Shown here piece by piece: positions 43,088 to 53,819 of a stretch of 64,000 nt of DNA (within the stretch, counting starts at the first letter, position 1; the number at the start of each line of letters is the position of its first letter). This DNA is from Asticcacaulis sp. EMRT-3 (lineage in GTDB: Bacteria; Pseudomonadota; Alphaproteobacteria; Caulobacterales; Caulobacteraceae): NCBI RefSeq assembly GCF_030027245.1, contig NZ_JASERT010000001.1, positions 827,001-891,000 of the forward strand. The letters are read 5' to 3'. The notes beneath the pieces were generated by a model. It made no database searches. It was not told the DNA's origin and worked only from the letters and a program-made list of their open reading frames with translations. The translations under genes were made by a program, and so were the position numbers.

Positions 43088-43576
43088 ATGACGACACCCA
43101 AACCCGCCGCTTCCGACCCGATTGATCCCAAGCTGGTTCGCAAGCTCGCTGACATACTGAAAGAAACCGAACTGTCGGAGATCGAGGTCGAGCAAGGCGG
43201 ACTGAAGATCCGCGTCGCCCGTCAGCTCCAGACGGCATCGCAGGTTTCCTATGTCCCCGCTGCGGCGGCACCCGCGCCTGTTCAGTCCGCCGCACCCGTT
43301 GCCGAAGCGCCGGCCGCCGCGGCGGCCCCGGCAGTCTCCTTCAAGGATGCGATCAAATCGCCGATGGTCGGCACCGTCTATTTGCAGGCCCAGCCCGGTT
43401 CACCGGCCTTCATCAAGGTGGGCGATACGGTCAAGCAGGGCCAGACCCTGCTGATCATCGAAGCCATGAAGACGATGAACCCCATCCCCTCGCCGCGCGA
43501 CGGCGTGGTGGCCCAGATTCTGGTCAGCGATTCCCAACCGGTCGAGTTTGGTGAAGCGCTGGTCGTTTTCGAGTAA
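43088..43576 (+). CDS. accB: Biotin carboxyl carrier protein of acetyl-CoA carboxylase
   Basis: A 162-residue carrier. The N-terminal helical segment (about 12-50) is followed by an Ala/Pro linker (about 55-83) and a biotinyl domain (about 85-162) with biotin lysine K128 in [10 protein letters not shown] and the BCCP thumb region AQPGSPAFI. It carries CO2 from AccC to the carboxyltransferase. Confidence 0.97.
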
Positions 43577-43583
43577 GGGTCAG

Positions 43584-44939
43584 ATGACCAAGCAATTTGA
43601 TAAGATCCTGATCGCCAATCGCGGTGAAATCGCCCTTCGCGTCATTCGTGCCGCCAAGGAAATGGGCATCAGCACCGTGGCCGTGCATTCCGAAGCCGAC
43701 CGCAGCGCCATGCACGTGCATCTGGCCGATGAAAGCGTCTGTATCGGGCCTGCTTCGGCGGCCAAATCCTATCTCAATATCCCGTCGATCATCGCCGCCG
43801 CTGAAATCACCGGCGCTCAGGCGATCCATCCCGGTTATGGCTTCCTGTCGGAAAATGCCCGCTTCGCCGAGATCGTTGAAGCGCACGGCATGACCTTTAT
43901 CGGGCCGAAACCCGAACATATCCGTATGATGGGCGACAAGATCACCGCCAAGCAGGCGGCGCGCGATTCCGGCATTCCGGTCGTGCCCGGCTCGGACGGC
44001 GGCGTCTCGACGGTAGAAGAGGCGATGGCAGCCGCCGAAACCATCGGCTTCCCCGTGCTGATCAAGGCGGCGGCCGGCGGTGGCGGACGCGGCATGAAGG
44101 TGGCCAAGACCAGAGACGATCTGGCCGAAGCCGTGCTCAGCGCCCAGACCGAAGCCGCCGCCGCTTTTGGCGATGGCACGGTCTATATGGAGCGCTATCT
44201 GCAAAAGCCGCGCCATATCGAAATTCAGGTTATTGCCGATAGTCACGGCAATGTGGTGCATCTGGGTGAACGCGACTGTTCCTTGCAACGCCGCCACCAG
44301 AAGGTGCTGGAAGAAGCCCCCTCACCGGTGATCGATGCGCAGGCGCGCGACAAGATCGGCATGACGGTTGTCAATGCCATCAAGGCCATCGGCTATCTTG
44401 GCGTCGGCACGATCGAGTTTCTGTATGAGGACGGCGAATTCTTCTTTATCGAGATGAACACCCGCCTCCAGGTCGAGCATCCGGTCACCGAATTTGTCAC
44501 CGATACCGATTTGGTGCGCGAACAGATACGCATCGCCGAAGGCCATCCCCTGTCCTTTACGCAATCCGACATCCAGATGCGCGGCCACGCTATCGAGGTG
44601 CGTATCAATGCCGAAAACGCGCGCACCTTCGTGCCTTCCCCCGGTACGGTGACCGATTTTCACGCCCCCGGCGGCCTCGGCGTGCGCATGGATTCGGCCA
44701 TCTATAATGGTTATGCCATCCCGCCCTATTACGACTCGCTCGTCGGCAAGCTGATTGTGCATGGCCGCGACCGGCCCGAAGCCCTGGCGCGCCTGAAACG
44801 TTCGCTTCAGGAAACGGTCGTATCCGGCATCGATACCACCATCCCGCTTTTCCTTGATCTGCTTCAGGAAAAGGACATCCAGACCGGCGACTACAACATA
44901 CATTGGTTAGAAAACTGGATTAAAGGCCAAGAGGCTTAA
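43584..44939 (+). CDS. accC: Biotin carboxylase subunit of acetyl-CoA carboxylase
   Basis: ATP-dependent biotin carboxylation; 451 residues from ATG 43584 with AAGGG upstream (the frame starting at 43548 overlaps accB and is not used). ATP-grasp motifs are [29 protein letters not shown], the [11 protein letters not shown] loop and [15 protein letters not shown] strong terminator follows. Confidence 0.98.
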
Positions 44940-45532: not shown

Positions 45533-46192
45533 TTGGCCGATTTCACCCTTGATGACCTGATCCAGTGCTATCGCAGCGGCGTCTTTCCGATGTCCGATGC
45601 GCGCGATGACGAATATCTGTTTCTCGTCGATCCGCCCCTGCGCGGTATCCTGCCTCTGGAGCAGTTTCACATACCGGCCAGGCTGGCGCGCACCGTGCGC
45701 AAGGATGATTACACGGTGCGCATCGATACGGCCTTCGCGCAGATCATCGAACTCTGCGCCGAGGAAGCCTATAACCGCACATCGACCTGGATCAGCCATG
45801 CCATTCAGGATTTGTATCAGGCCCTGTTCGCGCGCGGCCTGGCGCACAGCGTCGAGGTCTGGCGCGGTGAAGACCTGATCGGCGGCCTTTACGGCGTATC
45901 GATCGGCGGCGCCTTTTTTGGCGAAAGCATGGTGTCGCGCGCCAGGGATGCGTCCAAGATCGCCCTGGTGCATCTGGTGGCGCGGCTGCGCGCCGGTGGG
46001 TTCAGCCTGCTCGATTGCCAGTTTCAAACCGACCACCTGCGGCAATTCGGCGTCATGGAGATTGCCAAGGCCGATTATCTGAAGCTTCTCGGGCAGGCCG
46101 TTGATCAAAAAGCGGATTTTTACGTCTTGCCTAGCAAGACAAGCGGGGCCGAAGCGCTCGATTTCGTAGCTCAGGCACCCGGCAAGGGCTGA
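45533..46192 (+). CDS. aat: Leucyl/phenylalanyl-tRNA--protein transferase
   Basis: Adds Leu or Phe to N-terminal Lys/Arg so that ClpAP can degrade the protein (N-end rule); 219 residues. Family motifs are YRSGVFPMSDAR, FGESMVSRARDASKIAL and LLDCQFQTDHLRQFGV. The only in-frame start at the expected N-terminus is TTG 45533, with AGGA about 9 bases upstream; the nearby ATG 45495 is out of frame. It is convergent with the DUF2155 gene and overlaps it by 22 bases. Confidence 0.93.
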   Translation: MADFTLDDLIQCYRSGVFPMSDARDDEYLFLVDPPLRGILPLEQFHIPARLARTVRKDDYTVRIDTAFAQIIELCAEEAYNRTSTWISHAIQDLYQALFARGLAHSVEVWRGEDLIGGLYGVSIGGAFFGESMVSRARDASKIALVHLVARLRAGGFSLLDCQFQTDHLRQFGVMEIAKADYLKLLGQAVDQKADFYVLPSKTSGAEALDFVAQAPGKG

Positions 46193-47608: not shown

Positions 47609-50365
47609 ATGGCCGCATTGCCCCCCGCATTGCTCAAACTGTGTCCTCCGCTCGATCTGGAGGGCCGCGAAATCGAACGCGGAGCCGGACTGGCCTGGCT
47701 GATCTGCCCGCGCGACATGACCACAGCTCAGGCTGAGGCCTGGCTCGACTGGGGTGATTCGCTGGCGCGTGACCTGCCCGCCGGTGCCAAGCGTCGCACG
47801 CCTGACGAAGACGATCCGTTTGATGGCGCGATGGCTGATTATGCGCACAGGCTGGCGCAATGGGGGCTCACACTCGGCTATTTCCACGATTCCGCCGATG
47901 CGAACGCCTTCGCTGAAGCGGTTGAGGCCACCCTGCTGGCCGGACTGGCTGCGCCGGGGCTGGGCCTACCGTCGGGCCATCGCCTGCACCCGACGGCCGG
48001 CGACATCCTGCCGCCATCAAATGAGACGGCTCTGCTCTATCTCGATGATCATGCCGGTCGTCAGGCGCTGGGCCGCCGCCTGATCGACGCACGCGGTCGC
48101 ACCTTAAACCGCACGCTCGGCCAGCATCTTGCCGGAGCGCTTGAGGCGATCAGCGATGCCATCGCACGCAGTGAAGGCGACAACCGCACCAGTCTGAAAC
48201 ACAATGCTGCCCTGGCGCGCGCCGCCGCCCGCGCCCGCCGCCTCGGTGCCAGCGATACCCTGATCGCCCGCCAGATCCAGATGGGCGCGGGCAACTGGCC
48301 GGAAAGTGGTGCGCCTGACGAAACATCGCCCGCCTTGCGTGCCGTCATCGCGCCACGCGACCTTGTCGGGGCCGGTGATCCAATGGCGGTTCTGGCCGCC
48401 GAAGCCGCGCTGGAATCACCTCCTCTGCCGCTGGTGTTTGAACCCGCCGATGCTGAAGCCGTTGAAGCCTTGAATTGCGCGCCACGCGCCGCGCTCAATC
48501 TGACGCGATTTTTCGATGATGATGGCGCATTCGCACTCGACGCCTTTCTCGAAACCACCGCCCTGTGGGTGCGCGTCCTCGATATTGAGGTGGCTATCGG
48601 CTTTTCCGGTGAGGCCCAACATGCGCGCCGCCGCGCTGAGCAGCGCCCGCTGGCCCTGACTCTGGCGGGCCTTGGTGAAGTCCTGGTGGCGCAGGGTCTG
48701 AGTGTGCGCGACACAGCCGGGCTTGACTATGCGGCGCAGATTTTCGCACTATTTGAAGCGGTTGCGCTGGAAACCTCAACACTTCTGGCCGGTCAGCTAG
48801 CCCCCTATGAAGGCTTCGCCGCCGAAAAAACCGAGCGCCTCGACCGTCTGAGCCAGTATATTTACCGGATCGGAGAACTGAAAGGACATGGCGATCTCAA
48901 ACCCCACGCTCTCGAATTGATCCAGACGGCGCAAAAACGGGCGCGCAGCGTCGGGTTGCGCCACAGCCAGATCACCGCCATCTATCAGGATCACGAACTG
49001 GCTCTGCGCCTTGGTGCCAGTCTTGGCGTGCAGGCGCTCGATACACCGCTCACCGTCATGGAAGCGGGCGATGGCCTGTTGATCCCTACGCTCAAAGCCT
49101 GCGTGATCAAGGGGCTGCAAAACCTGGGCATGGACTGGCCGGAGGTGCGGCGTCACCTGCTCGGCAGCCGTCTGCTGCACGATGCGCCGCACATCAATAC
49201 GGCCACCCTCAAATGTAAGGGCCTGAGCGATTTTGAGATCAATCGCCTTCAGGAGGCTTTGCTGACAGCGGAAAACCTGTCCGAAGTCATGTCAACCCGC
49301 CATCTCGATGCCAATTTCATCAAGGATATATGGGGTTTAAGCGATGCCGAACTGGCCGACCCGGCGCTCGATCTTCTGGGCGTCATGGGTTTTTCCGCTG
49401 AGGAAGTGGCCGCAGCCGATGCCCATATTTTCGGCCATCGTGACCCCGAAGCCCTGCGCCTGATCAGCGATGGCGTCTATCATTTGCTGGCGCCTTTGCC
49501 GTTGAAACATCAGGTGGCTTTAAGGCAAAGACTGGAGGCCTTCTGCGACGCCCCCGACATCGTGCCTTTCGCTATTCAGTGGGAACAGGGCGTCAGCGAG
49601 GTGATGAAGCTTTATGCCCTGGCGGCCACAGCGGGCCTGCGCGCTGTGGACGTGCGCCGTCCCGACGCGCCGCCCGATTTCCGGCTTGATATTCCCGACA
49701 TTGACGAAGCCCCCAAACGCCCCCTCGTCGAACCGGTGAAAGAAGCGCCGCCGCGCATTGTTGAAAAACTGGTTGAGCGCGAGCGCAGCCGTTTAAAGCT
49801 GCCCGATCGCCGCAAAGGCTATATCCAGAAGGCGGGCGTCGGCGGCCACAAGGTCTATATCCATACCGGCGAATATGATGATGGCAGCCTTGGCGAAATC
49901 TTCATCGACATGCACAAGGAAGGCGCGGCCTTTCGTTCGCTGATGAATAATTTCGCCATCGCCATTTCGATCGGCCTGCAATATGGCGTGCCGCTCGATG
50001 AATTCGTCGATGCCTTCGCCTTCACCCGTTTTGAACCGGCAGGCCCTGTGACCGGCAATGACCGGGTCAAATCGGCTACCTCGATCCTTGATTATATCTT
50101 CCGCGAACTGGCCATTTCCTATCTCGACCGCGACGATCTGGCCAATGCCGACCCCGCCGGACTGAACGCCGACGGCCTGAGACAGGGCGATCAGCCAGTG
50201 CCTGCCGATACACCCGAAGACGCCCTGCCCGCTTCGCAACTGATCTCGAAAGGCTTTGCGCGCGGCACCCATACCGATAACCTCGTGGTGGTGCCCTTCG
50301 GTGCAAAAGCGCGGCGCGACAGCATTAACCCCTTGCCGGATGAACATGGTATAGAAGAGCGGTAA
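47609..50365 (+). CDS. Class II ribonucleotide-reductase-like pseudoenzyme with C-terminal TSCPD domain
   Basis: 918 residues, collinear with alphaproteobacterial vitamin-B12-dependent NrdJ from about residue 75 onward. [20 protein letters not shown] (78-97), [20 protein letters not shown] (295-314) and [16 protein letters not shown] (529-544) are recognisable NrdJ segments. The TSCPD domain (735-845; [40 protein letters not shown]) is nearly canonical. The catalytic core is eroded: PTGTIG is replaced by [10 protein letters not shown] (459-468), the NPC and CANPCG-type cysteine motifs are gone, only six cysteines remain (12, 33, 290, 498, 536, 646), and the terminal CxxC tail is missing. Reductase activity looks impossible. 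AGGA lies 7 bases before the ATG. The frame is intact, so it is a maintained gene rather than a pseudogene. Confidence 0.8.
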
Positions 50366-50415: not shown

Positions 50416-50970
50416 ATGAAACATGCAGTCCCGACAAAGAATGGCCCGAAAAAGAATGGCCCGAAACAGTCCCGTCTGAACTCTATAGGCCTGGCCCTGA
50501 TCGCCACGGCGCTTTTCGCCGCCCCGGCCTTTGCGCAGAATGCGGCTGAGGTGACCCGCGCCCAAAACGGTGCCAACTGCCCGCATTGCAATCTCTTTCA
50601 GGCCGATTTCAACAATCGCACCCTGAAAAACAAGAATTTCGCCGGTGCGCGTCTGCGTCAGGCCGATATGGGACTGGGCATTTTCAACGGCACCACCTTT
50701 GCCGGCGATGACCTGCGCGACATCAACGGGGCCGCCGCCCTGTTCGGCCACGTCAATTTCAGCCGCGCCAACCTGACCAATGCCAATTTCGTCGGAGCCT
50801 ATCTCGAACATGCCAATTTCAGCGGTGCCACGCTCGATGGCGTCAATTTTTCGGGCGCGGAAATGGGTTCGGCGGTCGGCCTGACGCAACGCCAGCTCGA
50901 CAAGGCGTGCGGCGACGCCTCGACGGAAATGCCGCGCGGCCTGCGTATTCCGGTGTGCCGACTGAAATAA
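50416..50970 (+). CDS. Secreted pentapeptide-repeat protein
   Basis: 184 residues. The N-terminus has a tandem KNGPKKNGPK segment encoded by a near-exact DNA repeat (50438-50465), then a signal peptide ending near AFA-Q (about residue 41). The mature part opens with CPHC (56-59) and continues with pentapeptide repeats A(N/D)(L/F)xx for roughly 18 turns (about 60-150), forming a right-handed beta-helix. It closes with LTQRQLDKACGDASTEMP, a tail I recall from other Caulobacter-type pentapeptide proteins. The function is unknown; CPHC could bind metal or form a disulfide. Confidence 0.85.
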   Translation: MKHAVPTKNGPKKNGPKQSRLNSIGLALIATALFAAPAFAQNAAEVTRAQNGANCPHCNLFQADFNNRTLKNKNFAGARLRQADMGLGIFNGTTFAGDDLRDINGAAALFGHVNFSRANLTNANFVGAYLEHANFSGATLDGVNFSGAEMGSAVGLTQRQLDKACGDASTEMPRGLRIPVCRLK

Positions 50971-51803: not shown

Positions 51804-53600
51804 TCAGGTGACCTTCAATGGCAAAGCCGTGCGGACATGCAATTCTTTCAATTGCTTATCCTCAACGCCTGACGGCGCATTCATCATCACATCCTGGCCT
51901 TGCTGGTTCAGCGGGAAGGCGATGACCTCACGGATCGCCTGTTGCCCGGCCAGCAGCATGACGATGCGGTCGATGCCGGGGGCCAGACCACCGTGCGGCG
52001 GCGCGCCGTATTTGAACGCATTGAGCATCCCGCCAAACTGGCTTTCGACGAAATCGGCGTCATAACCGGCAATCTCGAACGCTTTCAGCATGATGTCCTG
52101 CTTGTGGTTCCGAATTGCGCCGGAACACAGCTCATAGCCATTGCAGACGATGTCGTACTGATAGGCCAGAATGTCGAGCGGGTCTTTGGTTTGCAAAGCC
52201 TCCATCTCGCCTTGCGGCATCGAGAACGGATTGTGCGAGAAATCGACCTTCTTTTCGTCGTCATTATACTCAAACATCGGGAAATCGACGATCCAGCAGA
52301 AGCGGAACTGGTCTTCATCGACCAGACCGAGATCGGTGCCCACCTTGGTGCGCGCTAAACCGGCGAACTTGACGAATTCATCGACCTTGCCCGCCACGAA
52401 GAAGGCCGCGTCGCCGCTGCCAAGGCCAAGTTGCTGGCGCAGGGCTTCTGTGCGCTCCTCGCCGATATTTTTGGCCACCGGCCCTGCGGCTTCCAGCCCC
52501 TCAGTCGCGCCTTCCGGCGTGCGCCAGAAGATATAGCCGAGCCCCTTTTGGCCTTCACCCTGTGCCCAAGAATTTATCTTGTCGCAGAAGGCGCGTGAAC
52601 CACCGCCCTTGGCCGGAATCGCCCAGACGGCGGTTTTTTCCTGTTCCAGAATCGAGGCGAACACCTTGAAACCGGAACCGGCAAAATGCACGGAGACATC
52701 CTGCATCTCGATCGGGTTGCGCAGGTCGGGCTTGTCCGAGCCGTATTTGGCGATCGAGTCCTTGTAAGGGATGCGCTGGAACGGATAATCCGACACACGC
52801 TTGCCCTCACCGAACTCGCTGAACAGGCCGTGCATGACCGGCTCGATGGCGGCGAACACATCTTCCTGCGTCACAAAGCTCATCTCAATATCGAGCTGGT
52901 AGAATTCGAGCGAGCGGTCGGCGCGCAAATCTTCGTCGCGGAAGCAGGGCGCGATCTGGAAGTAGCGGTCGAAGCCCGAAACCATCAGCAATTGCTTGAA
53001 TTGCTGCGGGGCCTGCGGCAGGGCATAGAACTTGCCGGGATGCAGGCGCGACGGCACCAGAAAATCGCGTGCGCCTTCGGGCGACGAAGCAGTCAGGATC
53101 GGCGTCTGGTATTCGAGGAAGCCTTGCGCCACCATGCGGTTGCGGATCGACTGGATCACGTTCGAGCGCAGCACGATATTTTTGTGCAGGGTTTCGCGGC
53201 GCAGATCGAGGAAGCGGTTTTTCAGGCGGATTTCCTCAGGGTATTCAGGCTCACCGAATACCGGCAGCGGCAGTTCGGCGGCTTCCGACAAGACCTCGAC
53301 ATCGGCTACCTGAACCTCGATCTCACCCGTCGGCAGATTGGCGTTGATCGTGGCGTCATCGCGCCTGACCACCTTGCCATCGACACGGATGACGCTCTCG
53401 GCGCGCAAACGCTCCACCTTGGCGAAACCCGGCGAAGACGGATCGAACACCAGTTGCGTCAAACCGTAATGGTCGCGCAGGTCGATGAACAAAAGGCCGC
53501 CGTGGTCACGTTTGCGGTGAATCCAGCCCGAAAGGCGGGCCTGAGAGCCGGCATCGGCAGCGCGCAGGGCGCCGCAGGTGTGAGAACGGTAAATGTGCAT
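51804..53600 (-). CDS. aspS: Aspartyl-tRNA synthetase
   Basis: Class II synthetase, 598 residues from ATG 53600 ([10 protein letters not shown]). It has an N-terminal OB-fold anticodon domain (1-105), class II motif 2 [18 protein letters not shown], a bacterial GAD insertion (about 290-420) and motif 3 [14 protein letters not shown]. Whether it is discriminating or also charges tRNA-Asn cannot be settled from this window. It is divergent from hdaA across 219 bases without a recognisable gene. Confidence 0.97.
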
Positions 53601-53819
53601 GTCAAAAGCCGTATAGAATAAGGAATTTAGTTGCCGCGTAGGGCACATGATGCGCCTGTAAAGTCAAGTCCTTTTGGCAATTTGCACTACGCTCAGGACG
53701 GGCTTTTCATCAACAGGCCAGCGATCTTCTCCCCAGCCGCGCGCATTGTCATTGGGCGCGATGGCTTCTACACTCAAGGCCCGTCCAATCAGCCCTTTCC
53801 TTAAACCCGCCACAGGCCC

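What the first reader, a model, noticed from the sequence alone, without database searches (positions are those of the whole stretch)
47609..50365. A maintained, catalytically dead class II ribonucleotide reductase paralogue
The 918-codon open frame aligns in order with B12-dependent NrdJ and keeps an almost canonical TSCPD C-terminal domain (735-845), yet it has lost the PTGTIG loop (459-468 reads [10 protein letters not shown]), the paired-cysteine motifs and the terminal CxxC redox tail. A long intact frame with a conserved accessory domain and a destroyed active site suggests a repurposed protein, for example an NrdJ-binding regulator, a nucleotide or cobalamin sensor, or a structural subunit. 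The motif losses are read from sequence; the alternative function is inference.
Basis: partly seen in the sequence, partly recalled or inferred. Interest (0 to 1): 0.85.

Follow-up and report, generated by a model that had tools for sequence, protein, structure and literature searches.

The report
Non-catalytic descendant at the nrdJ locus
This gene is what remains of a vitamin B12-dependent DNA-building-block enzyme: its catalytic half has decayed while its C-terminal TSCPD domain stays almost unchanged, and related bacteria, including ocean SAR11, kept that domain after losing the enzyme, which suggests it does a separate, unknown job.

Summary
The frame is real and cannot work as a class II ribonucleotide reductase: radical cysteine, active-site redox cysteines, PTGTIG loop and C-terminal redox pair are gone. 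Its TSCPD domain stays 81-84% identical to intact NrdJ, against 12-45% elsewhere. "Paralogue" is not supported: the genome has no other TSCPD protein or class II barrel, only class I NrdA/NrdB, and the gene sits where nrdJ sits in other Alphaproteobacteria. By score, 205 of 299 Caulobacterales genomes carry a degenerate form. Of 109 distinct degenerate frames none has the six-cysteine tail and 100 keep four zinc-type cysteines. dN/dS is low on TSCPD and below 1 on the barrel. In one SAR11 family 36 of 38 genomes have a free TSCPD protein and no intact NrdJ; 36 of 40 of the sister family keep NrdJ. Best reading: TSCPD has a function separable from ribonucleotide reduction; what it does is inferred. 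Against: three families kept degenerate barrels but lost TSCPD, 18 of 299 genomes have neither form, and the search favours TSCPD-keeping forms.

The parts
47609..50365 (+). degenerate, non-catalytic NrdJ (918 aa) at the ancestral nrdJ locus
47843..47965 (+). possible N-terminal NrdJ-like remnant, residues 79-119
   Evidence: phmmer stretch to 7b9p 114-154 is not significant by itself (5 bits); visible in the alignment
48485..49444 (+). remnant of the C-terminal barrel half, residues 293-612, without radical and redox cysteines
   Evidence: 7b9p 489-829, i-Evalue 5.4e-15; residue counts
48983..49012 (+). residues 459-468 [10 protein letters not shown] in place of PTGTIG; D461, R467, L468, G469 conserved in the new family
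49787..50143 (+). TSCPD (IscU-like) domain, residues 727-845, 81-84% identical to intact NrdJ
50144..50362 (+). C-terminal tail; zinc ribbon and redox cysteines both absent in this genus
43548..44939 (+). accC, first gene of the conserved block (start codon not checked)
   Evidence: name from recall; synteny
45533..46192 (+). aat, leucyl/phenylalanyl-tRNA-protein transferase
   Evidence: Pfam PF03588
46171..47055 (-). DUF2155 protein
   Evidence: Pfam PF09923
46973..47446 (-). NDUFA12-like protein, the upstream neighbour
   Evidence: Pfam PF05071; nearest of the window's gene set in 29 of 30 degenerate and 6 of 9 intact Caulobacterales loci
50416..50970 (+). pentapeptide-repeat protein, the downstream neighbour
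   Evidence: Pfam PF00805; nearest of the window's gene set in 25 of 30 degenerate and 8 of 9 intact Caulobacterales loci
51804..53648 (-). aspS, also downstream of the free TSCPD gene in two SAR11-family loci (L198, L227)
   Evidence: name from recall

Best explanation
The protein is the positional descendant of class II ribonucleotide reductase NrdJ and is not a reductase. It is kept for a job separable from ribonucleotide reduction, carried in most of the lineages examined by the TSCPD (IscU-like) domain. SHOWN by sequence: loss of the catalytic and redox cysteines, retention of TSCPD, the same locus as nrdJ, purifying selection, and parallel reduction to a free TSCPD protein in a SAR11 family and another order. 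INFERRED: in a studied NrdJ the C-terminal domain drives dATP/dGTP-induced oligomerisation (Loderer 2017), so the likeliest retained activity is that of a non-catalytic, nucleotide-responsive oligomerising regulator or scaffold. GUESS (about 0.35): its target is the cell's class I NrdA/NrdB; otherwise another protein of DNA-precursor supply or replication. In Caulobacteraceae the barrel remnant has gained conserved features of its own (D-x-E-L-A-L-R-L-G loop) and probably contributes.
For: Residues: in 30 degenerate rows (chosen by model score) the radical cysteine and the ACNLAS cysteine are in 0 of 30 against 12 of 12 intact; the tail redox pair is lost in 30 of 30 and the four zinc-type cysteines kept in 28 of 30. 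In 109 distinct degenerate frames: ACNLAS 0, PHAC 0, PTGT 1 (chance, L046), six-cysteine tail 0, four-cysteine ribbon 100; in 54 intact frames 54, 52, 54 and 53 for the first four. This splits along Loderer's assignment of zinc ligands C920/923/936/939 and redox pair C933/945. At AccC identity 0.65-0.75, TSCPD identity is 0.84-0.85 intact-intact (7 pairs), 0.85 degenerate-degenerate (245), 0.83-0.85 mixed (132); the barrel falls from 0.55-0.57 to 0.23-0.24. dN/dS, independent pairs: degenerate barrel 0.258, TSCPD 0.031 (20 pairs); intact 0.062, 0.008 (14 pairs). Locus: NDUFA12 the nearest hit in 29 of 30 degenerate and 6 of 9 intact Caulobacterales loci and in 17 of 20 nrdJ loci of other families. 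SAR11: free TSCPD in 36 of 38 genomes of family f102, none with intact NrdJ; 36 of 40 of sister family f177 with intact NrdJ; locus the same in the two f102 loci read.
Against: Families f108, f125 and f119 have degenerate barrel proteins at the same locus with no TSCPD: four proteins read (G506, G672, G418, G412), Pfam finds the barrel and not TSCPD in 4 of 4; G595 has it in pieces. The model used for the searches scores the conserved C-terminus highest, so forms that lost TSCPD are under-detected. 18 of 299 Caulobacterales genomes have neither form by score, 8 of them one genus, so the gene is dispensable. Over all pairs rather than independent ones, barrel dN/dS differs less: 0.218 degenerate (62 pairs) against 0.160 intact (114 pairs), and TSCPD 0.026 against 0.034. 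The zinc ribbon is lost in Asticcacaulis and in G395. No structure, expression or phenotype was obtained; the target rests on no data from this window.
Confidence: 0.72

Rival explanations
1. A paralogue that binds and regulates an active NrdJ in the same cell.
For: Some Caulobacterales genomes hold a second, short NrdJ with its motifs beside the degenerate gene (e.g. G081, L064 and L065; G009, L165 and L180).
Against: The window's genome has no other TSCPD protein or class II barrel. Of 61 genomes of the window's family, 50 have one TSCPD match, 8 have two and 3 none. Locus and synteny are those of nrdJ itself.
Confidence: 0.04
2. A decaying relic without function (pseudogene in the making).
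For: Barrel dN/dS is higher than in intact NrdJ (0.258 against 0.062 in independent pairs; 0.218 against 0.160 over all pairs); some genomes lost the gene; G225 has barrel and TSCPD in different frames.
Against: Long open frames in the loci read; barrel dN/dS 0.04-0.42 and TSCPD about 0.03; TSCPD as conserved as in the intact enzyme at equal AccC identity; retention in small SAR11-family genomes.
Confidence: 0.03
3. A NrdJb-like redox helper that passes electrons to class I NrdA in trans.
For: In split NrdJa+b enzymes the C-terminal domain is a separate gene.
Against: The redox pair is lost in 30 of 30 aligned rows and the six-cysteine tail in 109 of 109 frames; NrdA of this genome ends in its own ECLACQ tail; the Asticcacaulis proteins and the SAR11-family protein read (L198) lack the ribbon.
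Confidence: 0.03
4. The barrel remnant is the functional part (binding site or new enzyme) and TSCPD only supports it.
For: Barrel dN/dS is below 1; the ex-PTGTIG loop is newly conserved; f108, f125 and f119 kept the barrel and lost TSCPD.
Against: Barrel identity between the window and two other Caulobacteraceae genera is 27-34%; the free proteins of the SAR11 family and of the order of G306 have no barrel.
Confidence: 0.12
5. Degenerate and intact genes are old paralogues from one early duplication with differential loss, or intact NrdJ was re-acquired at the locus.
For: The tree of barrel plus TSCPD splits 30 degenerate from 12 intact Caulobacterales rows with support 100 and rejects f4 as one clade (p 1e-7).
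Against: Fast-evolving barrels may attract each other; the TSCPD-only tree rejects neither grouping (p 0.89 and 0.85); the neighbour-gene tree joins intact L069 with degenerate f4 (support 100); both forms use one locus. SAR11 needs its own event or its own re-acquisition.
Confidence: 0.2

Closest known systems
Long dimeric class II RNR of Alphaproteobacteria (NF005736/PRK07562; nearest solved chain 7b9p)
   Same: same locus, domain order, TSCPD nearly identical, barrel remnant
   Different: no radical cysteine, redox cysteines, PTGTIG loop or redox tail; 372 bits against a cut-off of 1737
CRD / NrdJb of class II RNR (Loderer 2017, PMC5704485; abstract and passages seen)
   Same: TSCPD plus four-cysteine zinc ribbon in most relatives; the free form resembles NrdJb in layout
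   Different: no partner NrdJa in this genome; redox pair lost; no ribbon in Asticcacaulis or in the SAR11-family protein read (L198)
IscU-like domain of class II C-termini (PMC9669993; passages and section 2.4 seen)
   Same: by position and recall the same domain as Pfam TSCPD; its role is 'not reported in the RNR literature'
   Different: here it survives without the enzyme; no cysteines in it in the window's protein
Inactive RNR large-subunit homologues of cytomegaloviruses (search listing only; further detail recalled)
   Same: a dead RNR large subunit kept for a non-catalytic role
   Different: class I, viral; an unrelated event

Membership tests
Class II RNR (NrdJ) | thiyl-radical cysteine in the finger loop | tested here: not met
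   0 of 30 degenerate rows against 12 of 12 intact, groups chosen by model score. In one search, 77 the groups were set by this motif, so its count there is no test
Class II RNR (NrdJ) | active-site redox cysteine pair | tested here: not met
   PHAC segment deleted (one stray C in 30 rows); ACNLAS cysteine in 0 of 30 and 0 of 109
Class II RNR (NrdJ) | PTGTIG phosphate loop | tested here: not met
   YQDHEL in its place
Class II RNR (NrdJ) | curated NrdJ model cut-off | tested here: not met
   372 of 1737 bits
Class II RNR (NrdJ) | adenosylcobalamin binding | not testable with these tools
TSCPD domain (PF12637) | score over the gathering cut-off | tested here: met
   41.7 against 22.8 bits
CRD / NrdJb | six-cysteine C-terminal array | tested here: not met
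   absent in the window; 0 of 109 frames have six, 100 of 109 have four
NrdJb | catalytic NrdJa in the same genome | tested here: not met
   only a class I NrdA barrel besides this gene
IscU-like scaffold | cluster-ligand cysteines | tested here: not met
   no cysteine in residues 727-845

The most novel reading that the evidence does not exclude
The TSCPD (IscU-like) domain is an old, RNR-independent cellular module riding on class II RNR. Alphaproteobacteria that rely on class I RNR repeatedly discarded catalysis at the nrdJ locus and kept the module, fused to a decayed barrel (Caulobacterales and others) or free (SAR11 and the order of G306). It would be a nucleotide-responsive regulator of DNA-precursor supply or replication in some of the most abundant bacteria on Earth, now annotated as ribonucleotide reductase.
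Probability: 0.5. Interest if true: 0.9.

Novelty: new variant of a known kind. Interest (0 to 1): 0.77.

Why it matters
It separates, in nature, the C-terminal domain of class II RNR from the enzyme, so its unreported role can be tested in a cell without class II activity. It also affects annotation: the C. crescentus gene CCNA_01966, listed in print as NrdJ in a B12 pathway figure (PMC6538847, legend seen), very probably belongs to this degenerate family (not verified: no C. crescentus NA1000 sequence was read), and free SAR11 proteins are named ribonucleotide reductase by their sources. Inferences of B12 demand from such annotations would be wrong.

Tried and rejected
Paralogue acting on NrdJ: rejected for this genome. 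Shifted cysteines: no such set found. Neutral decay: rejected by dN/dS. Redox helper: rejected by loss of the redox pair. Counting independent decays inside Caulobacterales: unresolved, because three trees disagree; the neighbour-gene tree also puts intact L066 (f4) with f2 at 95, against its listed family. A barrel-only tree failed with a script error and was not repeated. Literature: searches listed no paper on a catalytically dead NrdJ or on TSCPD proteins without NrdJ; these are term searches of an open library that lacks most subscription papers, and most listings were not opened. Passages only were seen of PMC8365446 and PMC3019208. Classification of the 299 genomes as intact, degenerate or neither is my hand tally of best E-values (0 or below 1e-250; 1e-57 to 1e-122; above 1e-35), not a reading of each gene. 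In some searches the intact and degenerate groups were split by the NPCS motif itself, so the count of that motif there is by construction; the other motifs are independent of the split. L005, put among the degenerate by that rule, is intact NrdJ with SPC, hence 109 and not 110.

Full report
OBSERVATION. The frame 47609-50365 is open for 918 aa. Pfam sees a weak RNR barrel (294-533) and a TSCPD domain (742-835). The intact-NrdJ model NF005736 gives 372 bits against a cut-off of 1737. The closest solved chains are 7b9p and 7b9q, B12-dependent RNR, over 293-612; with a profile of the family the best stretch in them is 293-689 of 944 positions, and no listed match covers TSCPD. A protein search listed 112 relatives at E <= 1e-3 among 7995 scored candidates; those with source names are mostly from Asticcacaulis, Caulobacter, Brevundimonas, Phenylobacterium and other Caulobacteraceae.

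RESIDUES. I aligned 30 degenerate proteins, including the window's, with 12 intact NrdJ of the same order, the groups chosen by model score. The finger-loop radical cysteine is present in 12 of 12 intact and 0 of 30 degenerate rows. The ACNLAS cysteine is 12 of 12 against 0 of 30. The PHAC segment is deleted (one stray C). The four tail cysteines that Loderer et al. modelled as zinc ligands are kept in 28 of 30; the two that form their redox pair are lost in 30 of 30 (paper passages; in their metal data three of the four ligand mutants, not all four, lost zinc). In a wider set of fetched frames, distinct over their last 400 residues (109 degenerate, 54 intact), the degenerate ones have ACNLAS 0, PHAC 0, PTGT 1 (chance, L046), six-cysteine tail 0 and four-cysteine ribbon 100; the intact ones have 54, 52, 54 and 53 for the first four. 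The two groups were split by the NPCS motif (L005, with SPC, moved by hand), so that motif is not counted as evidence in this wider set. The nine degenerate frames without a ribbon are eight Asticcacaulis-type loci, the window's included, and L136, which stops at a contig end. The window's TSCPD region 727-845 is 81-84% identical to four intact NrdJ; other regions are 12-45%.

GENOME. The window's genome holds one TSCPD (this gene), a class I NrdA-type barrel with SNLCSEI, PTASIS and ECLACQ motifs (their meaning is recalled) and one NrdB match. There is no class II enzyme in it for this protein to regulate.

DISTRIBUTION. In 299 Caulobacterales genomes (tallied by hand from best E-values): 76 intact or fragmented NrdJ (18 of 59 in family f4, 58 of 59 in f5; 64 of 299 pass the model's cut-off), 205 degenerate (58 of 61 in the window's family f1, 33 of 59 in f4, 114 of 120 in f2 and f3 together) and 18 neither. 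These classes rest on scores; sequences were read for fetched loci only. TSCPD is found in 283 of 299, NrdB in 291 of 299. Some genomes hold a second, short NrdJ with its motifs (L065, L171, L180, L181); Loderer et al. also note two NrdJ in a few Alphaproteobacteria, only one with the C-terminal domain.

SAME LOCUS. accC-aat-DUF2155(-)-NDUFA12(-)-gene-pentapeptide surrounds both forms. Among hits to the window's genes, NDUFA12 is the nearest in 29 of 30 degenerate and 6 of 9 intact Caulobacterales loci, the pentapeptide gene in 25 of 30 and 8 of 9; contig ends cut some loci, and unmatched genes may lie between. In 20 nrdJ loci of other alphaproteobacterial families, 17 show NDUFA12 next to nrdJ by the same measure; of the other three, one is a 5.8-kb contig (L234) and two show no neighbour hit (L230, L238). 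The window's gene is therefore the positional descendant of nrdJ.

THE SAME THING ELSEWHERE. In the order of G395 (78 genomes), family f102 (38) has a free TSCPD frame of 273-294 aa in 36, no intact NrdJ, and an NrdA-type match in 36; sister family f177 (40) has NrdJ over the cut-off in 36 and no NrdA-type match. Close relatives of the free protein are named Candidatus Pelagibacter or Pelagibacteraceae by their sources (candidates capped, 120 rows listed), so f102 is very probably the SAR11 family Pelagibacteraceae. In the order of G306 (32 genomes, only 5 of them at least 90% complete and little contaminated) none has intact NrdJ and 27 have a TSCPD match, 24 of these in frames of 270-301 aa; the one read in full (L199) keeps four tail cysteines. 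NDUFA12 is the nearest hit in both f102 loci read (L198, L227) and both of the other order (L199, L229). Long degenerate forms with TSCPD also occur in G338, G678, G603 and G514, the first three beside NDUFA12 and the fourth with no neighbour hit. Since SAR11 and Caulobacterales each contain relatives with intact NrdJ, at least two independent losses of catalysis with retention of TSCPD are likely, unless NrdJ was re-acquired.

CASES AGAINST. G506 and G672 (f108), G418 (f125) and G412 (f119) have degenerate barrel proteins at the same locus without TSCPD: Pfam finds the barrel and not TSCPD in 4 of 4; G418 keeps a stretch that looks like a TSCPD fragment by eye. G595 (f108) has it in two pieces at separate places. 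One genus of f4 (8 genomes) and a few others have neither form. The search model scores the conserved C-terminus best, so forms that lost TSCPD are under-detected and the balance seen is biased towards TSCPD-keeping forms.

SELECTION. Nei-Gojobori dN/dS, pairs at 70% protein identity or more with dS 0.15-1.2. Each locus used once: degenerate, 20 pairs, barrel plus N-terminus median 0.258 (0.042-0.417), TSCPD 0.031 (maximum 0.177); intact, 14 pairs, 0.062 (0.018-0.231) and 0.008 (maximum 0.067). Over all pairs, which are not independent: degenerate 0.218 and 0.026 (62 pairs), intact 0.160 and 0.034 (114 pairs); the relaxation of the barrel is thus clear in sign and unsure in size. At equal AccC identity the TSCPD of degenerate proteins is as conserved as that of intact enzymes, while the barrel is far less so (only 10 intact-intact pairs). 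The ex-PTGTIG loop has become a conserved D-x-E-L-A-L-R-L-G in the Caulobacteraceae set. So the barrel is relaxed but not free, and TSCPD is under strong constraint.

TREES. Barrel plus TSCPD: degenerate against intact, support 100; f4 as one clade rejected. TSCPD alone: neither grouping rejected. Neighbour genes: intact L069 falls with degenerate f4 at 100, intact L066 with f2 at 95. How many decays occurred inside Caulobacterales is open.

MECHANISM. Published work on one class II RNR gives its C-terminal domain two roles: electron delivery through a redox pair, and dATP/dGTP-induced oligomerisation. The first is abolished here. The IscU-like part has no reported role; I equate it with Pfam TSCPD from position and recall. 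The economical inference is that oligomerisation or nucleotide response, or an unknown binding role, is what was kept, acting on class I RNR or another part of DNA-precursor metabolism. That last step is a guess at about 0.35. Shown are the residue losses, locus, distribution and selection; the rest is inference.

PRIOR KNOWLEDGE. Ten searches of the open library listed no paper that describes this. PMC6538847 (passages) names C. crescentus NrdJ as CCNA_01966 in a figure legend; PMC5869019 (one table row) calls it vitamin B12-dependent ribonucleotide reductase and lists it among RNAs co-purified with GsrN. That it belongs to this family is inferred: the C. vibrioides control genome matches TSCPD but has no NrdJ over the cut-off, and frames of close relatives (L096, a C. 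vibrioides MAG by its title, and L185) fall in the degenerate group.

Noticed in passing
L198 9409-10224; L199 9744-10577: A SAR11-type family and another small-genome order carry a free TSCPD protein at the nrdJ locus beside class I RNR; relatives are named ribonucleotide reductase in databases.
   Followed up: yes
L218 (G506), L219 (G672), L222 (G418), L223 (G412): The reverse case: degenerate barrel kept at the locus, TSCPD not found by Pfam.
   Followed up: partly
TSCPD coding region in degenerate loci: Synonymous divergence in TSCPD is lower than in the rest of the gene for degenerate proteins (median ratio 0.75, 15 independent pairs, 0.41-1.00) but not for intact NrdJ (1.01, 10 pairs). 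Codon bias, recombination or an overlapping element could explain it.
   Followed up: partly
L040 8400-11100 (G225): Barrel and TSCPD lie in different frames: a frame change in the linker, real or a sequencing error.
   Followed up: no
L065, L171, L177, L180, L181: A second, short class II RNR frame (743-828 aa, NPC motif and six-cysteine tail) in genomes of several families.
   Followed up: no
window 50416-50970: A pentapeptide-repeat protein lies next to both intact and degenerate nrdJ in most Caulobacterales loci examined; no link in function is known to me.
   Followed up: partly
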